From the NCBI RefSeq assembly GCF_033096445.1, contig NZ_AP028155.1, positions 186,001 through 250,000 on the forward strand: DNA of 64,000 nt, written 5' to 3'. The stretch's first letter is position 1. Each line of letters opens with the position of its first letter. The notes under the pieces were generated by a model, which ran no database searches, was not told the origin of the DNA, and was given only the letters and a program-made list of their open reading frames with translations. This DNA comes from Butyricimonas faecihominis (GTDB taxonomy: Bacteria > Bacteroidota > Bacteroidia > Bacteroidales > Marinifilaceae). This document shows, piece by piece, positions 30,226 to 38,090 of the stretch. A program made the position numbers and the translations under genes.

Positions 30226-30678
30226 ATGAGTAAATGGAGTGTAGTGCATACAGTTACGTTTTTGCAGGATGCTTACATGATCAAGTCTTACTTGGAATCG
30301 GCTGGAATCGAGACTTTGATACCGGATGAGTTTACCGCACAGGTGAATAATTTCTATACCACGGCGATTGGTGGTGTGAGACTGATGGTACGCACGGAGG
30401 ATTTGGAATCGGGGGTGGCTTTGTTAAAAGAAGGCGGGTACATTAATCCCGAAAATTCGGTAACGGATGAGGAGATTTTGATCGTGGGAGCAGATAGTTC
30501 CACGGATATGACTTGTTGTCCGTTCTGTGGTTCTGCGAATATCGGTAAAAGAAACACGCCGGGAATGGCGATGGTGATTCTTTATTTCTTGTTGTCGGCG
30601 TTATTTCCGATATTCCGGTCGGCAAACAAGTGTTTTGATTGTGGTAAGATCTGGAAATTTAAAAAGATAAGACAATGA
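30226..30678 (+). CDS. DUF2007 protein with zinc ribbon and membrane hairpin
   Basis: A 150-residue protein. Residues about 4-75 form the DUF2007 ferredoxin-like domain (TVTFLQDAYMIKSYLESAGI, RLMVRTEDLESGVALLKEGG). After a linker come two Cys pairs, CCPFCGSANIG (about 102-112) and NKCFDCGKIW (about 137-146). Together they make a treble-clef-like zinc ribbon, but a hydrophobic membrane-type segment (MAMVILYFLLSALFPIF) lies between the pairs. The stop overlaps the ATG of the next gene (ATGA at 30675-30678), so the two are translationally coupled. Confidence 0.8.
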   Translation: MSKWSVVHTVTFLQDAYMIKSYLESAGIETLIPDEFTAQVNNFYTTAIGGVRLMVRTEDLESGVALLKEGGYINPENSVTDEEILIVGADSSTDMTCCPFCGSANIGKRNTPGMAMVILYFLLSALFPIFRSANKCFDCGKIWKFKKIRQ

Positions 30679-30950
30679 TGAGTGAGGTTAAATTGGCGAA
30701 TATTGATGGTGAGGAATTACGGAGAGAGCTCGAAATTTTGTTCGAGGATAAGGAGAAAAGAGTGTTTTTCATGCAGATGTTGGCAACAAGTGTCAAGGAG
30801 ACAAACGAGTTGCTAAATGTGGTGACTTTGATGCTGGAATCCCCGGAAATATTACAGAATCCCGAGTCCAAGATGAAGATATGTGAATTTCTGAAGAAAC
30901 ATAAGGGTATTATTGCCGATTTATCAGAGAGTATGAAAGTGTTTTTATAG
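30675..30950 (+). CDS. Small helical hypothetical protein coupled to DUF2007 gene
   Basis: A 91-residue soluble, mostly helical protein (MMSEVKLANIDGEELRRELE; MKICEFLKKHKGIIADLSES). I do not recognise a family. Start overlap with the preceding DUF2007 gene supports a real gene and a joint function. It ends just before the convergent EamA gene. Confidence 0.7.
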   Translation: MMSEVKLANIDGEELRRELEILFEDKEKRVFFMQMLATSVKETNELLNVVTLMLESPEILQNPESKMKICEFLKKHKGIIADLSESMKVFL

Positions 30951-31001
30951 TTTGATTTCAAGATTTGTTTATAACAGCTTTCACTTTTTTCTTTTTGTTT
31001 A

Positions 31002-31892
31002 TCAATGCGAATCCTGCAATGATAATACGAGGGCGATTGGGTCGTGCCATGAGAATTTCTGGAGACCGAGCGATATTGACACGATGGCTCCGGTGATAGG
31101 GAGGAGGTAAATATACACGCTTTCCACAAAGGGCGAAATGTATAGCAGGGCTTTCAAGTTTAGGAAGTAAGCTATCATCGTGGCGAAAATAAGCACGAAA
31201 CCGAGTTCCAACCAGATATGTACGGGAGCCTCTGACGTGAATAGCGGGGCTTCGAGGGTTTGATGCAAGCCGAAAGGGAGTACGAGGATAAAGGCTGCCA
31301 AGCTCATCCAGCGCATCACGATAACCGAATTGAATTTCTGGGTGTAGGGTTTGATTAATATGAGATAGAGCGCGTTGAAAACCGAGGCAACGAAGATCAG
31401 AACGTCTCCTGTGAATGAGTCTTTCACCGCTCCTGCGTGCGGGGTGATTGAAACGTAAAGAGTTCCCGCAAGTCCCAAAACGATACCGATGGCTTTGTAG
31501 CGATTGAAGTCCGCGTGAAGAATCAGTACGGCGAGTGCAATTACGATAATAGGTTGCACGGTACGGATAACAAAAGCATCCACGGGACCCGTGATATTCA
31601 AGCCGTTGATGTATAGTAGTAAGTTACCCCCGATGCCGAGCAGACCGCCCAGCATCATCATGAAAATGTCTTTTCTTTTGGGTTTTGCCTGTTGTTTATT
31701 TGCCGGGATGAAGAGGGAGATGATCCAGAAACCGAAAGCCATGACCGTGCAACGAATTAACACGAGGCCATGAGGACCGATCCATTCCGGCATGAGGATC
31801 TTCATGAAATTCGTGTTAAAGCTATATATGACAATTGTAGACAAGACCATGAGATGCCCGATGATCTCTTTTGGCTTTTGAGTTGTTTCCAT
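31002..31892 (-). CDS. EamA/DMT-family transporter with C-terminal frameshift
   Basis: An inner-membrane drug/metabolite transporter of 296 residues with two EamA halves (about 10-145 and 160-290; GLLGIGGNLLLYINGLNITG, and the SPFVESVYIYLLPITGAIVS signature). The open frame ends abruptly as FSWHDPIALVLSLQDSH. Beyond Leu in DPIAL, near 31026-31028, the other frame encodes IIIAGFALINKKKKVKAV and stops at 30958-30960, which is a normal EamA last helix and basic tail. One missing base explains this; the intact gene would be 30958-31892 with 311 residues. It could be a real truncation or a sequence error. Confidence 0.82.
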   Translation of the reverse strand: METTQKPKEIIGHLMVLSTIVIYSFNTNFMKILMPEWIGPHGLVLIRCTVMAFGFWIISLFIPANKQQAKPKRKDIFMMMLGGLLGIGGNLLLYINGLNITGPVDAFVIRTVQPIIVIALAVLILHADFNRYKAIGIVLGLAGTLYVSITPHAGAVKDSFTGDVLIFVASVFNALYLILIKPYTQKFNSVIVMRWMSLAAFILVLPFGLHQTLEAPLFTSEAPVHIWLELGFVLIFATMIAYFLNLKALLYISPFVESVYIYLLPITGAIVSISLGLQKFSWHDPIALVLSLQDSH

Positions 31893-31999
31893 TCGTGTCG
31901 TTTTTTCGTGATAAACGGAAACTTCCCGGATAAGGTTTGAGTCGGTCTTGTAAATTATATTAAAAACTCAAACACTTGGTCGTGGTGGTGGATAATGTA

Positions 32000-33262
32000 T
32001 TACTTGTGCATATCCAGTGCAACATCACCTGCCGGAATCGGTTCTTTTCTTATAGAGAAATGGAAACGAGTTCCACGTCCTTCAGAAGAGGTAAATTGAA
32101 TGGTTCCGCCCATCGCCTCAATGTATGCCTTACAAATAGATAGACCCAGTCCGGGGCCGTCGGTAAAGGTGTTTGCCTTATAGAATCTCTCGAAGAGGTA
32201 CGTGTGTATTCTGGGCGGCATTCCTAAGCCCGTGTCTTCCACGATGAAGTTAATCATATTTTGTTCTTCATCCACGGAATAAGCGAGTTTGATGTGTCCT
32301 TTGTTTGTGAATTTCTGGGCGTTGGACAGGAGATTGAGAATTACCTGATATAATTTTTGTTGATCCGTGTACACCAAGAGATTCGGGGAGTCTCCTTCCA
32401 AATACAATTCCACGTTCGGGTGGGTGTTGTTCATTCGAAGAAGGATAATATCCTGAAAAAACTCGTGCAGACAGAAGGTTGCCATCTGTAAATCGATCTT
32501 GTGCGCATCGATCCGGGCCAGCCGCAACACGTCATTTGCCAGATGCGAGAGTTGGTCGGAGTGTTCGTATATAAGATTCATGTACTCGTTTTGCTGGTTA
32601 GGTGTCAGTGTTTTATCCGTACTTACTAGGTTGGTCCAGCCTAAGATGCAGTTTAACTGGTCGTTAATTTCGTTACTCAGTTTTTCGAGAAACGTGAATT
32701 TTGACTTTTCAATCCGTTCTGTTTTGGCCAAAGCATCTTGTAAGCGAATTTGAGCCTGTTTGAGTTCCGTGATGTCATGAATGGTAATTAACATTTCCGG
32801 ACGGTTGTGAATGTTCATGTATGAACCGGAAACGGCAACATTGCATTTGAAGGTTTTCTTGTCTGATAGACGCAGGCTTACAGTGGTTTCCAAGTTAGAA
32901 AAGTCCTTTTTCGTTTTAAAGGCTTCCGTTACTGCCTGTCTGATGGGACAAGCCTTGCAAAGTTCTCCGTTGCCGCAACCTTTATTCAGGGAATTGACAC
33001 AATTAAGTAGTTCCCCGACTCTTTTAGGTTGTCCAGAGTCCTCGGTGTCTGTGATCGCGTAATAGTTCGTTTTCTCCACGATAAAGTTCCTGTCAATGAC
33101 AAGGATATAGGACTTTATGTGTTGTAAAATAAAATTGAATAGTGCCTCAGAAGTTTTGATTTCTCCTTTTTTGTCGCTAATAATTTGTTTCGCCTGTATA
33201 TACTTGTATAAAATAAACAGGATTACACATATTAGTATCGCGATAATGATGTTATATTTCAT
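32000..33262 (-). CDS. Membrane histidine-kinase-like protein lacking the phospho-acceptor His
   Basis: A 420-residue protein starting at ATG 33262 (MKYNIIIAIL) with one N-terminal membrane helix (about 4-22). A PAS domain (about 40-165) contains four cysteines, Cys88, Cys96, Cys102 and Cys105. The dimerisation region reads FLEKLSNEINDQLNCILGW where active kinases have [19 protein letters not shown], so Asn197 replaces the catalytic His and Gln replaces the Pro. The ATPase domain is intact: YQVILNLLSNAQKFT (N box), VEDTGLGM (G1) and [11 protein letters not shown] (G2). It therefore probably binds ATP but cannot autophosphorylate by the usual route. A regulatory pseudokinase or partner of another kinase is the likeliest role. 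Confidence 0.88.
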   Translation of the reverse strand: MKYNIIIAILICVILFILYKYIQAKQIISDKKGEIKTSEALFNFILQHIKSYILVIDRNFIVEKTNYYAITDTEDSGQPKRVGELLNCVNSLNKGCGNGELCKACPIRQAVTEAFKTKKDFSNLETTVSLRLSDKKTFKCNVAVSGSYMNIHNRPEMLITIHDITELKQAQIRLQDALAKTERIEKSKFTFLEKLSNEINDQLNCILGWTNLVSTDKTLTPNQQNEYMNLIYEHSDQLSHLANDVLRLARIDAHKIDLQMATFCLHEFFQDIILLRMNNTHPNVELYLEGDSPNLLVYTDQQKLYQVILNLLSNAQKFTNKGHIKLAYSVDEEQNMINFIVEDTGLGMPPRIHTYLFERFYKANTFTDGPGLGLSICKAYIEAMGGTIQFTSSEGRGTRFHFSIRKEPIPAGDVALDMHK

Positions 33263-33437
33263 GCTACACACTTCTTGTAATTCACCACAAAGTTGTTAAA
33301 TTTTACCGATGTTCCAAAGGATAGAATTATAAATTTCTATATTTTTTGGAAAATTGTTCTGTCGCAAACACTCCTTTTTTGCAATATTTTTGTTTTTCGT
33401 TCTGATGTGCAGGTGTTTGCTAGTAGGGAAGATGGCA

Positions 33438-34038: not shown

Positions 34039-35403
34039 ATGAAACAAACATTGACATTTAACCTTTCCACGATCGCTTCTACGGAAAGTAAAATTAAGGT
34101 CGATTATTTCGATACGAGTGTAGAGGCGTTCGATAATGGAGAATATTTGCAGTCGTTCTATGCTTTATTGGACTATGTGAACGACGAATTCCGTGAGAAA
34201 TACGGGAACGCGAAAGGAACGGAATTTAATATTCCTCATGGTTCGATCGTGGTGAATATAAAGATCGAGGATGATCGGTTGTTGATTCACGCACCGTTTC
34301 TCTCTTTGCCGGAGAAGAATCGTATTCCCTTGTTACGGCAGGTTGCAGGCTTGAATTTTAATGCTATGGACTTGGCTCAAGTTGAGTTGAAAAAGGATCG
34401 ATTGGCATTCGAGTACACTTGCCCGCTGGCACTGGCAAATCCTTACAAGATTTATTATATTCTTCAGGAGATTTGTAACACGGGAGACAAGTATGATGAC
34501 GAGTTCGAGACCAAGTTCGGGGCTCAACGGATATATGAACCGAAAGTAACTCCTTTTGACGATGAGACGCTGAACACGGTTTACGAGGTGGTACAATTGA
34601 GTTGTAAGGAGTGTATGGATGCCGTGAAGGATTTTGAGGTGGACCGGAAATACGGGTTTGCGTGGAACGTGCTGGATACGACGATATTGAAGATATTGTA
34701 TTACGCTCACCCGCAGGGACAGTTGTTGAATGACTTGAATAAGGCCGTTTCCGAGATGGATCGGGAAGATATTCCGCTGCCGGAAGTGGTGAATTACGGG
34801 AAGTCTGTCATTGCCCGCTTGCAGGGAATGACGAAAGAGCAATGGGCTGAGGATTTGTATTACGTGGAGACCTTTATTTCGGATAAACGTCGTTCTAATT
34901 TGAAGAATATTCAGGAGAATTTCGAGAATTCATACAATCGTGCGACCCAAGCGTTTGAAACAGGTGATTACATGACGTGTTGCTTGATGATTGTTTACAA
35001 GTTCTACGAGATGTACTATTATAATAACGTGCAGGATGACGTGAATGCGGTTGTGGTTCGTGCCTTGGAAAAAGCTTCCGCCAAACCTTGGGATGAGGCT
35101 GCCCCGATCTTACATGCTGCCATGGATAATATCATGGAGGGAGAGTTGGAACCGGATGATGACGACGACGAGGAAGGTGAATTTGATATGTCCCAGATGA
35201 TGCAGGGTATGCAGCAAATGATGCAGCAAGGAATGCAACAAGCGGCACAAGCCATGCAACAGGGCGGTGGAATGATGGAGTACGTGCAGAAGGTGCAGGA
35301 GTTGCAGCAACAGCTAGCTGCCGGACAGGTGAGTATGGAAGATTATATGTTGAAAGTACAACAGTTAGCCGCCACTTATATGGGGAACGGTCAGCAACAA
35401 TAA
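34039..35403 (+). CDS. YbjN/secretion-chaperone-like protein with Met/Gln-rich tail
   Basis: A 454-residue cytoplasmic protein. Residues about 15-150 resemble the YbjN / type III secretion-chaperone fold: a dimer-type helix (YLQSFYALLDYVNDEFREKY), then strands with LLIHAPFLSLPEKNRIPLLR and DRLAFEYTCPLALANPYKI. The middle (about 175-360) is helical and matches nothing I know. It ends with an acidic patch (EPDDDDDEEGEFD, about 373-385) and a tail of Met, Gln and Ala (MMQGMQQMMQQGMQQAAQAM) predicted to be helical or disordered. The protease gene starts 9 bp downstream and carries a related domain, so the two very likely work together. Confidence 0.65.
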   Translation: MKQTLTFNLSTIASTESKIKVDYFDTSVEAFDNGEYLQSFYALLDYVNDEFREKYGNAKGTEFNIPHGSIVVNIKIEDDRLLIHAPFLSLPEKNRIPLLRQVAGLNFNAMDLAQVELKKDRLAFEYTCPLALANPYKIYYILQEICNTGDKYDDEFETKFGAQRIYEPKVTPFDDETLNTVYEVVQLSCKECMDAVKDFEVDRKYGFAWNVLDTTILKILYYAHPQGQLLNDLNKAVSEMDREDIPLPEVVNYGKSVIARLQGMTKEQWAEDLYYVETFISDKRRSNLKNIQENFENSYNRATQAFETGDYMTCCLMIVYKFYEMYYYNNVQDDVNAVVVRALEKASAKPWDEAAPILHAAMDNIMEGELEPDDDDDEEGEFDMSQMMQGMQQMMQQGMQQAAQAMQQGGGMMEYVQKVQELQQQLAAGQVSMEDYMLKVQQLAATYMGNGQQQ

Positions 35404-35412
35404 TGAAATTTA

Positions 35413-36498
35413 ATGATTATGGAACAGAATATTTTTAACACTGTATATAAGGTCAATCATGCCGGTGGGTCAGGCAGTTGTTTTTACTTGAAAAATTATG
35501 ACCTGTTCGTGACGAATTACCACGTGGTGGACGGTTTCCGCGAGGTTGCCCTGCAAGATAACGACAAAAATCGTTTTTACGCTAGAGTAGTGTTGGTGAA
35601 CCCGGCAAAGGATATAGCCTTTTTAAAAGCCGAGGGGGATTTCTCCGCCCTACCGGAAATCGCTTTGTCCGCGTTAGATAGCGTGTCTATCGGCCAGAAG
35701 ATCAACGTGGCAGGTTACCCGTTCGGGATGCCGTTCACGGTAACCGAGGGAACCGTGTCGTCCCCAAGGCAGTTGATTAACGATAGTTATTATATCCAGA
35801 CGGATGCCGCCGTGAATCCGGGAAACAGCGGGGGACCGATGTTCAATGACCGGGATGAACTGGTCGCAATCACGGCAAGCAAAATCACGGATGCGGATAA
35901 CATGGGATTCGGTATTCCGGTGACGGCTTTACGTGAGTTATTGGAACAGATCGGTGATCTGGATACAAGCGTATATAACGTGCAATGTAATAGTTGTGAC
36001 GAGTTTATTTCCGATGAAGAGGAATATTGCCCGTCATGCGGGGATAAGTTGCCGTCGAATGTTTTCCAGGAACGTTCATTGACCGACTTGGCAGTTTTCT
36101 GCGAGGAAGCTATTCAGGCTATGGGAATTAATCCCGTGTTGGCCCGTGTCGGTTACGAGAGTTGGGTGTTCCACAAGGGAAGTTCAGAGATCCGTATGTT
36201 CGTGTACCAGCGTTCTTACCTGTTCTGTACTTCACCGATCAACGTGTTACCGAAGAAGAATCTCGAACCCGTGTTGACGTACTTGTTGAATGCAGAGGTG
36301 AAACCTTATCAATTGGGATTGGACGGTAATCAGATTTATCTGTCTTACCGGATTCATATCTCCGACATCTTCTCTGATTTTGCAGACGAGGTACAGAAAA
36401 ATATCACGAATATGGCATTCAAGGCAGATGAGCTGGATAATTACCTGATGGATACTTTCGGGTGTGAATTGTCCGAGTATGCCAAGAATGACGCTTGA
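35413..36498 (+). CDS. Cytoplasmic trypsin-like serine protease with zinc ribbon and YbjN-like domain
   Basis: A 361-residue protein without signal peptide. Residues 1-180 form a chymotrypsin/HtrA-like protease with a complete triad: His37 (TNYHVVDGF), Asp67 (KDIAFLKA) and Ser139 (GNSGGP). Instead of a PDZ domain there is a zinc ribbon (Cys192, Cys195, Cys206, Cys209; CNSCDEFISDEEEYCPSCG). The C-terminal half (about 222-355) contains TSPINVLPKKNLEPVLTYLL, which aligns by eye with the YbjN-like region of the upstream protein. Start ATG 35413, with ATG 35419 as alternative. No HtrA partner or membrane anchor is seen, so the substrate is probably cytosolic. Confidence 0.85.
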   Translation: MIMEQNIFNTVYKVNHAGGSGSCFYLKNYDLFVTNYHVVDGFREVALQDNDKNRFYARVVLVNPAKDIAFLKAEGDFSALPEIALSALDSVSIGQKINVAGYPFGMPFTVTEGTVSSPRQLINDSYYIQTDAAVNPGNSGGPMFNDRDELVAITASKITDADNMGFGIPVTALRELLEQIGDLDTSVYNVQCNSCDEFISDEEEYCPSCGDKLPSNVFQERSLTDLAVFCEEAIQAMGINPVLARVGYESWVFHKGSSEIRMFVYQRSYLFCTSPINVLPKKNLEPVLTYLLNAEVKPYQLGLDGNQIYLSYRIHISDIFSDFADEVQKNITNMAFKADELDNYLMDTFGCELSEYAKNDA

Positions 36499-36518
36499 TA
36501 GAGGAAAATATATTGAGT

Positions 36519-36712
36519 CAAGGAGGCTGTTCAAAAAGTCTCTTCTCAAACTCCCTCCCCCCTTCGGGGTACTCCCTCTATAAACAGAGGGAGAGCTGAA
36601 ATACTTCCTGTCTTCGGGAAGAGTCACCAGCTCCTCCTCTGTTTATAGAGGAGGTGGCACGAAGTGACGGAGGAGTTTTTGGAAATAAAATGACTTTCCG
36701 AACGGCCTCTCT
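36519..36712. repeat. Family A palindromic element, copy A1
   Basis: About 194 bp with inverted termini AAGGAGGCTGTTCAAAAAGTC and GACTTTCCGAACGGCCTCT. The core has CTCCCTCTATAAACAGAGGG and CCTCTGTTTATAGAGGAGGT hairpins around GAAGAGTCACCAGCTCC. It lies between the protease and acetyltransferase genes. Related copies occur at 39892, 46356, 54303 and 57882. Confidence 0.88.
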
Positions 36713-37292: not shown

Positions 37293-37340
37293 AGATGATT
37301 GTGTATATAATTGTTGTATCTTTATCTGCAAAATGAGAAT

Positions 37341-38090
37341 ATGGATAAAGTAATTTTAACCCAAGAGAATATAGAACAGGAACATATTTGTTGTGCCATG
37401 TCTGACAAGAAAAGTGCTGAGGGTGTGGAGGCCAAGAAAGAGTGGTTGGCGTGTCGTATGGAGGAGGGATTGAAGTTTGTCAAACTGAATGTCCGGGGAA
37501 AAGTTTTCATCGAGTATTTACCGGCTGAATATGCTTGGGTGCCTATCGAGGCGGACGGCTACACCTTCATCAATTGTCTGTGGGTGGCCGGATCGTTTAA
37601 AGGACACGGATACGGTCGGGAGTTGTTGAAAACGTGTGAGGAAGATGTTGCGGGTACAAACGGTGTGGTCGTGATGGTAGGGAAGAAGAAGTTACCGTAT
37701 CTTTCGGACAAGGCTTTTTTCATCAGGCACGGGTACGAGGTGTGTGATTCGTGTGTTCCGAACATCGAATTATTGGTAAAACGGTTCAGACCGGATGCAC
37801 CGTTTCCTCGTTTTAAATCGTGTGCCTCTGCCGGTTTGGGCGATGATGTTAAGGGAATAGATATATTTTACACGGCACAATGTCCTTTTACGGTGCCCTA
37901 TATCAAACTACTAGATCCGGTTATTCAATCTTCAAGTGTTCCCGTGCGGGTACACCCGATAATGACTCATGAAATGGCACGGGATCATCGGGCGCCGCTC
38001 ACCACGTATAGCGTGTTCGTGGATGGGAAATTTTATACCCGAGAAGTTCTTACTCCGGTAAAGTTACAGAAACTACTGGCGGAACAGTAG
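37341..38090 (+). CDS. YoaP-like GNAT N-acetyltransferase
   Basis: A 249-residue protein from MDKVILTQENIEQEHICCAM; an upstream in-frame start at 37311 is less likely. The GNAT core (about 40-130) has the acetyl-CoA loop WVAGSFKGHGYGRELL. The C-terminal part (about 175-245) resembles the YoaP domain: IDIFYTAQCPFTVPYIKLLD, a thioredoxin-fold-like strand with one Cys, then TTYSVFVDGKFYTREVLT. The target is unknown. It follows the hexapeptide acetyltransferase by 48 bp. Confidence 0.85.
   Translation: MDKVILTQENIEQEHICCAMSDKKSAEGVEAKKEWLACRMEEGLKFVKLNVRGKVFIEYLPAEYAWVPIEADGYTFINCLWVAGSFKGHGYGRELLKTCEEDVAGTNGVVVMVGKKKLPYLSDKAFFIRHGYEVCDSCVPNIELLVKRFRPDAPFPRFKSCASAGLGDDVKGIDIFYTAQCPFTVPYIKLLDPVIQSSSVPVRVHPIMTHEMARDHRAPLTTYSVFVDGKFYTREVLTPVKLQKLLAEQ

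What the first reader, a model, noticed from the sequence alone, without database searches (positions are those of the whole stretch)
34039..36498. Two-gene unit: YbjN-like protein with Met/Gln tail plus cytoplasmic protease carrying a related domain
Seen: the first protein has a secretion-chaperone/YbjN-like region (APFLSLPEKNRIPLLR) and an acidic then Met/Gln-rich tail. The second, 9 bp downstream, joins a complete trypsin-like triad (His37, Asp67, Ser139), a four-Cys zinc ribbon and a C-terminal region (TSPINVLPKKNLEPVLTYLL) that looks homologous to the first protein. Known: HtrA-type proteases usually have signal peptides and PDZ domains; this one has neither. Inference: the shared fold could let the two proteins dimerise, with the first acting as adaptor or substrate-presenting partner of an intracellular protease, possibly in proteostasis or a defence-like response. 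I know of no described system of this form.
Basis: partly seen in the sequence, partly recalled or inferred. Interest (0 to 1): 0.66.

Follow-up and report, generated by a model that had tools for sequence, protein, structure and literature searches.

The report
Obligate chaperone-like/protease gene pair
Two neighbouring genes, always found together in scattered Bacteroidota, encode a protein with a secretion-chaperone fold and a cell-internal trypsin-like protease carrying a second copy of that fold, which probably join to hold and cut client proteins; this exact pairing appears undescribed.

Summary
P1 (34039-35403) has a YbjN / type III secretion chaperone-like (TY-chaperone) domain, an all-helical domain and a variable tail. 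P2 (35419-36498) has a complete trypsin triad, a four-Cys zinc ribbon and a C-terminal domain of the same TY-chaperone fold (PDB 2plg matches both domains, Z 12.2 and 14.1). P1 and P2 occur in exactly the same 19 of 395 sampled Bacteroidia genomes, side by side in 16, unlinked in 3. Of 61 further Bacteroidales loci, 57 have the pair side by side, two are cut by contig ends, and two (Rikenella-like) are a natural fusion of P1 to the P2 chaperone domain with protease and zinc ribbon lost, still under purifying selection; its model places the two parts confidently against each other (pTM 0.86). A sister species lost both genes in one deletion. Best explanation: a cytoplasmic chaperone-protease complex in which paired TY-chaperone domains replace the PDZ domains of HtrA. 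Client, dimer interface and proteolysis are inferred, not shown. The Met/Gln tail is not a defining part. No defence link found. New variant of a known kind.

The parts
34039..35403 (+). P1 gene, 454 aa: TY-chaperone domain, helical domain, variable tail
   Evidence: ORF; homologues with the same start in the loci examined
34135..34533 (+). P1 residues 33-165, TY-chaperone (YbjN / type III secretion chaperone) domain
   Evidence: AlphaFold2 model pLDDT 94, pTM 0.90; VIA-align Z 12.3-8.3 to about 36 such entries over this range; Pfam TY-Chap1 E 3.3e-4, below its curated cut-off
34546..35139 (+). P1 residues 170-367, all-helical domain of unknown role
   Evidence: Confident helices in the model; conserved in homologues
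35134..35400 (+). P1 residues 366-454, acidic then Met/Gln-rich tail; variable or absent in relatives
   Evidence: Sequence; tails listed; under purifying selection between close relatives (dN/dS 0.07-0.09)
35419..36498 (+). P2 gene, 359 aa: trypsin-like protease, zinc ribbon, TY-chaperone domain
   Evidence: ORF; conserved start
35431..35958 (+). P2 residues 5-180, trypsin-like (HtrA-type) protease domain with His35, Asp65, Ser137
   Evidence: Trypsin_2 96.6 bits; triad conserved
35986..36039 (+). P2 residues 190-207, four-Cys zinc ribbon (CxxC...CxxC)
   Evidence: Zn_ribbon_3 E 2e-4, below its cut-off; all four Cys invariant in class-wide alignment
36052..36474 (+). P2 residues 212-352, second TY-chaperone domain, paralogous to that of P1
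   Evidence: hhalign to P1 domain; intermediate sequences; fold matches Z up to 14.1 in the fusion homologue

Best explanation
P1 and P2 are the two obligate subunits of a cytoplasmic chaperone-protease complex. Shown by comparison: both carry a TY-chaperone domain, they are inherited and lost together, and a natural fusion joins the two chaperone domains. Inferred: the P1 and P2 TY-chaperone domains pair, much as the heterodimeric type III chaperone SycN-YscB does, and hold an extended or unfolded stretch of a client protein; this places the client next to the trypsin domain of P2, which cuts it. The TY-chaperone and zinc ribbon would do the recognition and assembly job that PDZ domains do in HtrA proteases. 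In some Bacteroidaceae and Rikenellaceae the pair sits behind LemA and DUF3137 genes and beside a lipoprotein gene, so the clients may be cell-envelope proteins that have not been exported or are damaged.
For: Same 19 of 395 genomes for P1 and for P2; two further genomes drawn later both have an adjacent pair. Adjacency in 57 of 61 genome-collection loci, with two cut by contig ends and two fused. Shared fold of both domains and homology by profiles: hhalign score 28.0 against shuffled mean 14.2, sd 2.7, maximum 24.5; a distant P1 matches the P2 C-domain HMM at E 1.5e-7 over 47-181; a P1 HMM matches P2 proteins at E about 1e-8. Natural fusion of P1 to the P2 chaperone domain, with no separate P2 found in those genomes, dN/dS 0.18, model pTM 0.86 over 533 residues. 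Evolutionary distances of the P1 and P2 chaperone domains correlate better (r 0.90) than those of P2 chaperone and P2 protease, which share a polypeptide (r 0.82). Both genes lost in one deletion in a sister species. LemA and DUF3137 upstream in 12 of 52 loci with enough sequence.
Against: No experiment. pTM shows confident placement of the P2 domain relative to P1 but not which surfaces touch; it could be the helical domain. The distance-correlation advantage vanishes in the more distant half of the set (0.947 against 0.952). The fusion has lost the protease, so the chaperone part can serve without cutting. Three genomes carry the genes unlinked. LemA/DUF3137 neighbours were not found outside Bacteroidaceae and Rikenellaceae in the stretches examined.
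Confidence: 0.55

Rival explanations
1. P1 is the regulator or dedicated substrate of P2: its TY-chaperone domain caps the one on P2 and its tail lies in the active site as a pseudosubstrate, so that a signal releases the protease.
For: Obligate pairing; long flexible acidic and Met/Gln tail under purifying selection between close relatives.
Against: The tail is absent or quite different in many homologues that keep an intact protease; the fusion keeps P1 with the chaperone domain after the protease is gone, which a pure inhibitor would not need.
Confidence: 0.15
2. The core is a non-proteolytic TY-chaperone pair that keeps exported or envelope proteins unfolded; the protease is a secondary editing activity.
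For: Fusion without protease maintained in two genomes; envelope-type neighbours in a subset; YbjN-fold proteins are thought to bind partners without proteolysis (PMC3575483; PMC10948618).
Against: Triad and zinc ribbon are conserved almost without exception across the class, so proteolysis is kept nearly everywhere; only two related genomes lack it.
Confidence: 0.2
3. A defence or self-cleavage alarm system in which P1 senses an invader and switches on the protease.
For: Patchy distribution (19 of 395 genomes); trypsin-like proteases and TY-chaperones are both named as parts of predicted conflict systems (PMC7159879; PMC9503650).
Against: Only generic trypsin matches in PADLOC; no P1 homologue found in phages, plasmids or viral contigs; no recurrent defence genes recognised among neighbours; both proteins are well conserved along their length apart from the P1 tail.
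Confidence: 0.07

Closest known systems
HtrA/DegP-type serine proteases (S1C, Trypsin_2)
   Same: Trypsin fold, His-Asp-Ser triad, GNSGGP motif; best PDB sequence matches are MucD, HhoA and DegP-like proteins.
   Different: No PDZ domain matched and no evident signal peptide; instead a zinc ribbon and a TY-chaperone domain, and an obligate partner. Scores far below NCBIfam cut-offs for HtrA families.
YbjN / AmyR / DR1245 / Tll0839 proteins
   Same: Fold and helix-strand order of both chaperone domains; 2plg is among the best matches of both. DR1245 is a dimer and binds DdrB (PMC3575483).
   Different: Those are single-domain proteins without a protease; the YbjN Pfam model gives no match in the window's genome.
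Class I type III secretion chaperones (SycN-YscB, CesT, SicP, ExsC)
   Same: Same fold, Z up to 12.5; one of them is a natural heterodimer.
   Different: No secretion-system genes recognised near the pair; here the fold is fused to, and paired with, a protease.
TY-Chap1/2/3 proteins of ARG-centred NAD/ADP-ribose systems (PMC9503650)
   Same: P1 matches TY-Chap1 weakly (E 3.3e-4); proposed peptide-binding chaperones.
   Different: Below the curated cut-off; no NAD/ADP-ribose genes recognised near the pair.
BacA / YjfI (DUF2170) beside a PspA gene (PMC10948618)
   Same: TY-chaperone fold encoded beside a membrane-stress gene.
   Different: No protease, different family, different neighbours.

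Membership tests
TY-chaperone superfamily (YbjN / class I type III chaperones), P1 N-domain | Alpha-beta3-alpha-beta2-alpha fold | tested here: met
   Model order H51-55 E62-67 E70-77 E80-89 H95-108 E114-118 E121-129 H135-160; Z 12.3 to 8.3 for about 36 entries, then a drop to 6.7
TY-chaperone superfamily, P2 C-domain | Same fold | tested here: met
   In the fusion homologue H412-415 E421-425 E430-436 E440-449 H455-464 E471-475 E478-486 H495-520; 2plg Z 14.1, rmsd 2.4, 123 aligned
Pfam TY-Chap1 (PF22551) | Score over curated cut-off of 27 bits | tested here: not met
   P1 20.7 bits; P2 no match; so superfamily, not this family
Pfam YbjN (PF10722) | Score over curated cut-off | tested here: not met
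   No match in the window's genome
TY-chaperone superfamily | Dimer that binds an extended peptide | not testable with these tools
   Fusion pTM 0.86 implies defined packing but no interface can be read
Trypsin-like serine peptidases | Trypsin fold family with complete catalytic triad | tested here: met
   Trypsin_2 96.6 bits over cut-off 27.6; triad conserved
HtrA/DegP proteases | C-terminal PDZ domain | tested here: not met
   No PDZ model matched; C-terminus is a TY-chaperone domain
HtrA/DegP proteases | Score over NCBIfam cut-offs | tested here: not met
   degP_htrA_DO 130 against 416 bits; others also below
HtrA/DegP proteases | Signal peptide or export | tested here: inconclusive
   No hydrophobic N-terminal stretch by eye in the listed homologues; no predictor was run
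Known anti-phage systems (PADLOC) | System-specific protein models | tested here: inconclusive
   P1 none; most P2 matches (RT-Protease, PDC-M35A, LmuA) lie in the protease region, 2-200 at most

The most novel reading that the evidence does not exclude
An undescribed cytoplasmic chaperone-protease of Bacteroidota, without an ATPase part, in which a heteromeric TY-chaperone (secretion-chaperone fold) captures unfolded clients, perhaps envelope proteins awaiting export, and hands them to a PDZ-less HtrA-like protease: a design of substrate delivery outside the AAA+ and PDZ types.
Probability: 0.4. Interest if true: 0.75.

Novelty: new variant of a known kind. Interest (0 to 1): 0.6.

Why it matters
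Intracellular proteolysis in bacteria is mostly described through ATP-driven machines, and HtrA proteases through PDZ domains in the periplasm. A conserved cytoplasmic trypsin-like protease whose recognition part is a secretion-chaperone fold, with an obligate partner of the same fold, would be a different way to choose and deliver substrates. It would also give a testable role to the widespread but poorly understood YbjN-type fold. The pair occurs in culturable gut genera such as Butyricimonas, Bacteroides and Alistipes, so it can be tested.

Tried and rejected
Two-sequence BLASTP of P1 and P2 gives no significance (E 0.17); the homology needs profiles or folds. A mixed alignment of the fusion with separate P1 and P2-domain rows (A4) was discarded because P1 rows were laid onto the P2 domain; it was replaced by A8, anchored with rows that read through the stop between the two genes. 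Amphipathic character of the P1 C-terminal end was tested and is not above background (mean moment 0.52 against 0.49, sd 0.13), so a membrane-anchor idea based on the Phe/Met-rich ends was dropped. Phage, plasmid and viral-contig searches with P1 found nothing. Literature searches for YbjN with serine protease and zinc ribbon, and for cytoplasmic HtrA with a chaperone domain, found no description of this pair; the library holds open-licence papers only. No confident structural match for the P1 helical domain appeared among the rows, but it was not searched alone, so nothing is claimed.

Full report
What is there. P1 (34039-35403, 454 aa) and P2 (35419-36498, 359 aa) are adjacent, same-strand genes. 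The P2 start at 35419 is preferred because homologues begin there; the catalytic residues are then His35, Asp65 and Ser137. P2 matches Trypsin_2 well over its cut-off, and the zinc-ribbon models only below theirs, but its four cysteines are invariant in a class-wide alignment. P1 matches Pfam TY-Chap1 at E 3.3e-4, below the curated cut-off.

Is the relationship between the two proteins real? Directly compared, it is not visible (E 0.17). With 50-odd homologues each, hhalign aligns P1 67-163 with the P2 C-domain collinearly (score 28.0; 100 column-shuffled controls had mean 14.2, sd 2.7, maximum 24.5). Distant relatives close the gap: a P1 homologue (in L142) matches the P2 C-domain HMM at E 1.5e-7 over residues 47-181, and a class-wide P1 HMM finds four P2 proteins at E 1e-8 to 6e-7. 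These E-values are for small sets of ORFs. Searched separately, the two profiles have the same best PDB sequence, 2plg, weakly (E 0.0035 for P1, 0.054 for P2). Structure settles it: P1 residues 1-371 model at pLDDT 94 and pTM 0.90, and the 33-165 region matches about 36 type III chaperone and YbjN-type entries with Z 12.3 to 8.3, followed by a drop to 6.7. The P2 C-domain, modelled inside a natural fusion homologue, has the same order of elements and matches 2plg with Z 14.1, rmsd 2.4 over 123 residues, and many of the same entries. So both proteins carry a TY-chaperone domain. That is membership of the superfamily; the Pfam TY-Chap1 family cut-off was not met.

Are the genes a unit? Among 60 relatives, 10 genomes carry P1 and the same 10 carry P2; all 11 pairs are adjacent. 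A scan of a genome collection gave 61 loci, in Bacteroidales by their record titles: 57 have P1 followed by P2 (gap mostly 9-40 bp; in L057 and L076 one of the two frames is broken), two are cut by contig ends, and two are fused. Of 395 genomes drawn from the class, 19 have P1 and the same 19 have the P2 zinc ribbon plus C-domain at E below 1e-40. Sixteen are adjacent; in G537, G096 and G532 the genes lie apart but both are present; adjacency in G415 is read. Two additional genomes met later, one outside the class, again have adjacent pairs. The genomes are related, so no simple probability is given, but the 19 lie in nine family groups. In sister species G004 one deletion joins P1 codon about 9 to the last 30-odd codons of P2 (score 72 against a shuffled maximum of 24), so both were lost together; in G003 the whole stretch is missing. 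The pair is therefore dispensable.

The natural fusion. In two Rikenella-like MAGs (L044, L045) one ORF joins P1 to the P2 chaperone domain, without tail, protease or zinc ribbon. Apart from the fusion, a search of these genomes with the P2 profile found only an HtrA-size protease matching the protease part. Both halves show dN/dS near 0.18: maintained, though looser than the intact pairs (mostly 0.02-0.11, up to 0.16). The fusion's model has pTM 0.86 over 533 residues. My own estimate is that about 0.67 would be expected if the P2 domain were placed at random relative to P1, so the placement is confident. The rows used for this alignment read through the stop between the two genes in 20 loci, to keep P1 and P2 paired. 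Neither PAE nor coordinates were available, so the interface itself is not known.

Coevolution. With equal numbers of columns, evolutionary distances of P1's and P2's chaperone domains correlate better (r 0.902) than those of P2's chaperone and protease domains (r 0.820). This holds in the whole set and the nearer half but not in the farther half, so it is a hint only.

Context. LemA and DUF3137 genes lie upstream in 12 of 52 loci with enough upstream sequence (one search counts 13, but L049 is a distant downstream opposite-strand pair); in several the spacing is operon-like, for example about 15 bp in L047, while in L038 and L039 there is a gap of over 1 kb. A lipoprotein-like gene is next to the pair in about ten loci, upstream in some and downstream in others. 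These are Bacteroidaceae and Rikenellaceae by record titles. The LemA and DUF3137 proteins have hydrophobic segments by eye, which points to the cell envelope but does not prove a link.

Mechanism. Shown: parts, their conservation, joint inheritance, shared fold, and a natural fusion. Inferred: pairing of the two TY-chaperone domains, capture of an unfolded client, and cutting by P2. The precedents are SycN-YscB, a heterodimer of this fold bound to YopN (title of 1xkp), and DR1245, a dimer that binds DdrB (PMC3575483). P2 resembles HtrA in its protease domain only; with no PDZ domain found it should not be called an HtrA protease. The Met/Gln tail is variable: long in most Bacteroidales, short and basic in others, nearly absent in some, and a Met/Gln-rich end is seen again in G597, of the same family group as the pairs with short basic tails in G143 and G166.

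Novelty. I found no paper describing the pair in the open-licence library. TY-chaperones were previously proposed as chaperones in NAD/ADP-ribose systems (PMC9503650), and BacA, of this fold, is encoded beside a PspA-type protein (PMC10948618). The components are known; the arrangement is a new variant.

Noticed in passing
window 36516-36690: An imperfectly palindromic repeat of about 175 bp, starting just after the P2 stop, with about 40 near-identical copies (89-98%) in both orientations in this genome and further copies in sister species; MITE- or REP-like.
   Followed up: partly
L044:5998-7596 and L045:2-1594: Natural fusion of P1 with the P2 chaperone domain after loss of tail, protease and zinc ribbon.
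   Followed up: yes
L216 (G004 C2:307300-308000): Deletion scar in a sister species that joins the first codons of P1 to the last codons of P2.
   Followed up: yes
L008, L010, L011 (tail-less P1 in Odoribacter-type genomes): The tail-less P1 forms end in -IAA or -LAA, reminiscent of the end of the SsrA degradation tag.
   Followed up: no
P1 N-terminus in L138-L141, L146, L148; C-terminus in L134-L137, L034-L042, L057: A short Phe-rich peptide (MxFFxxLF or KKGFFxxLF type) recurs at the N-terminus in one clade and at the C-terminus in others; meaning unknown.
   Followed up: partly
window 30659-33271, 37311-38090: Neighbouring genes (histidine kinase, transporter, acetyltransferases by eye) are shared with only some sister species and show no evident link to the pair.
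   Followed up: no
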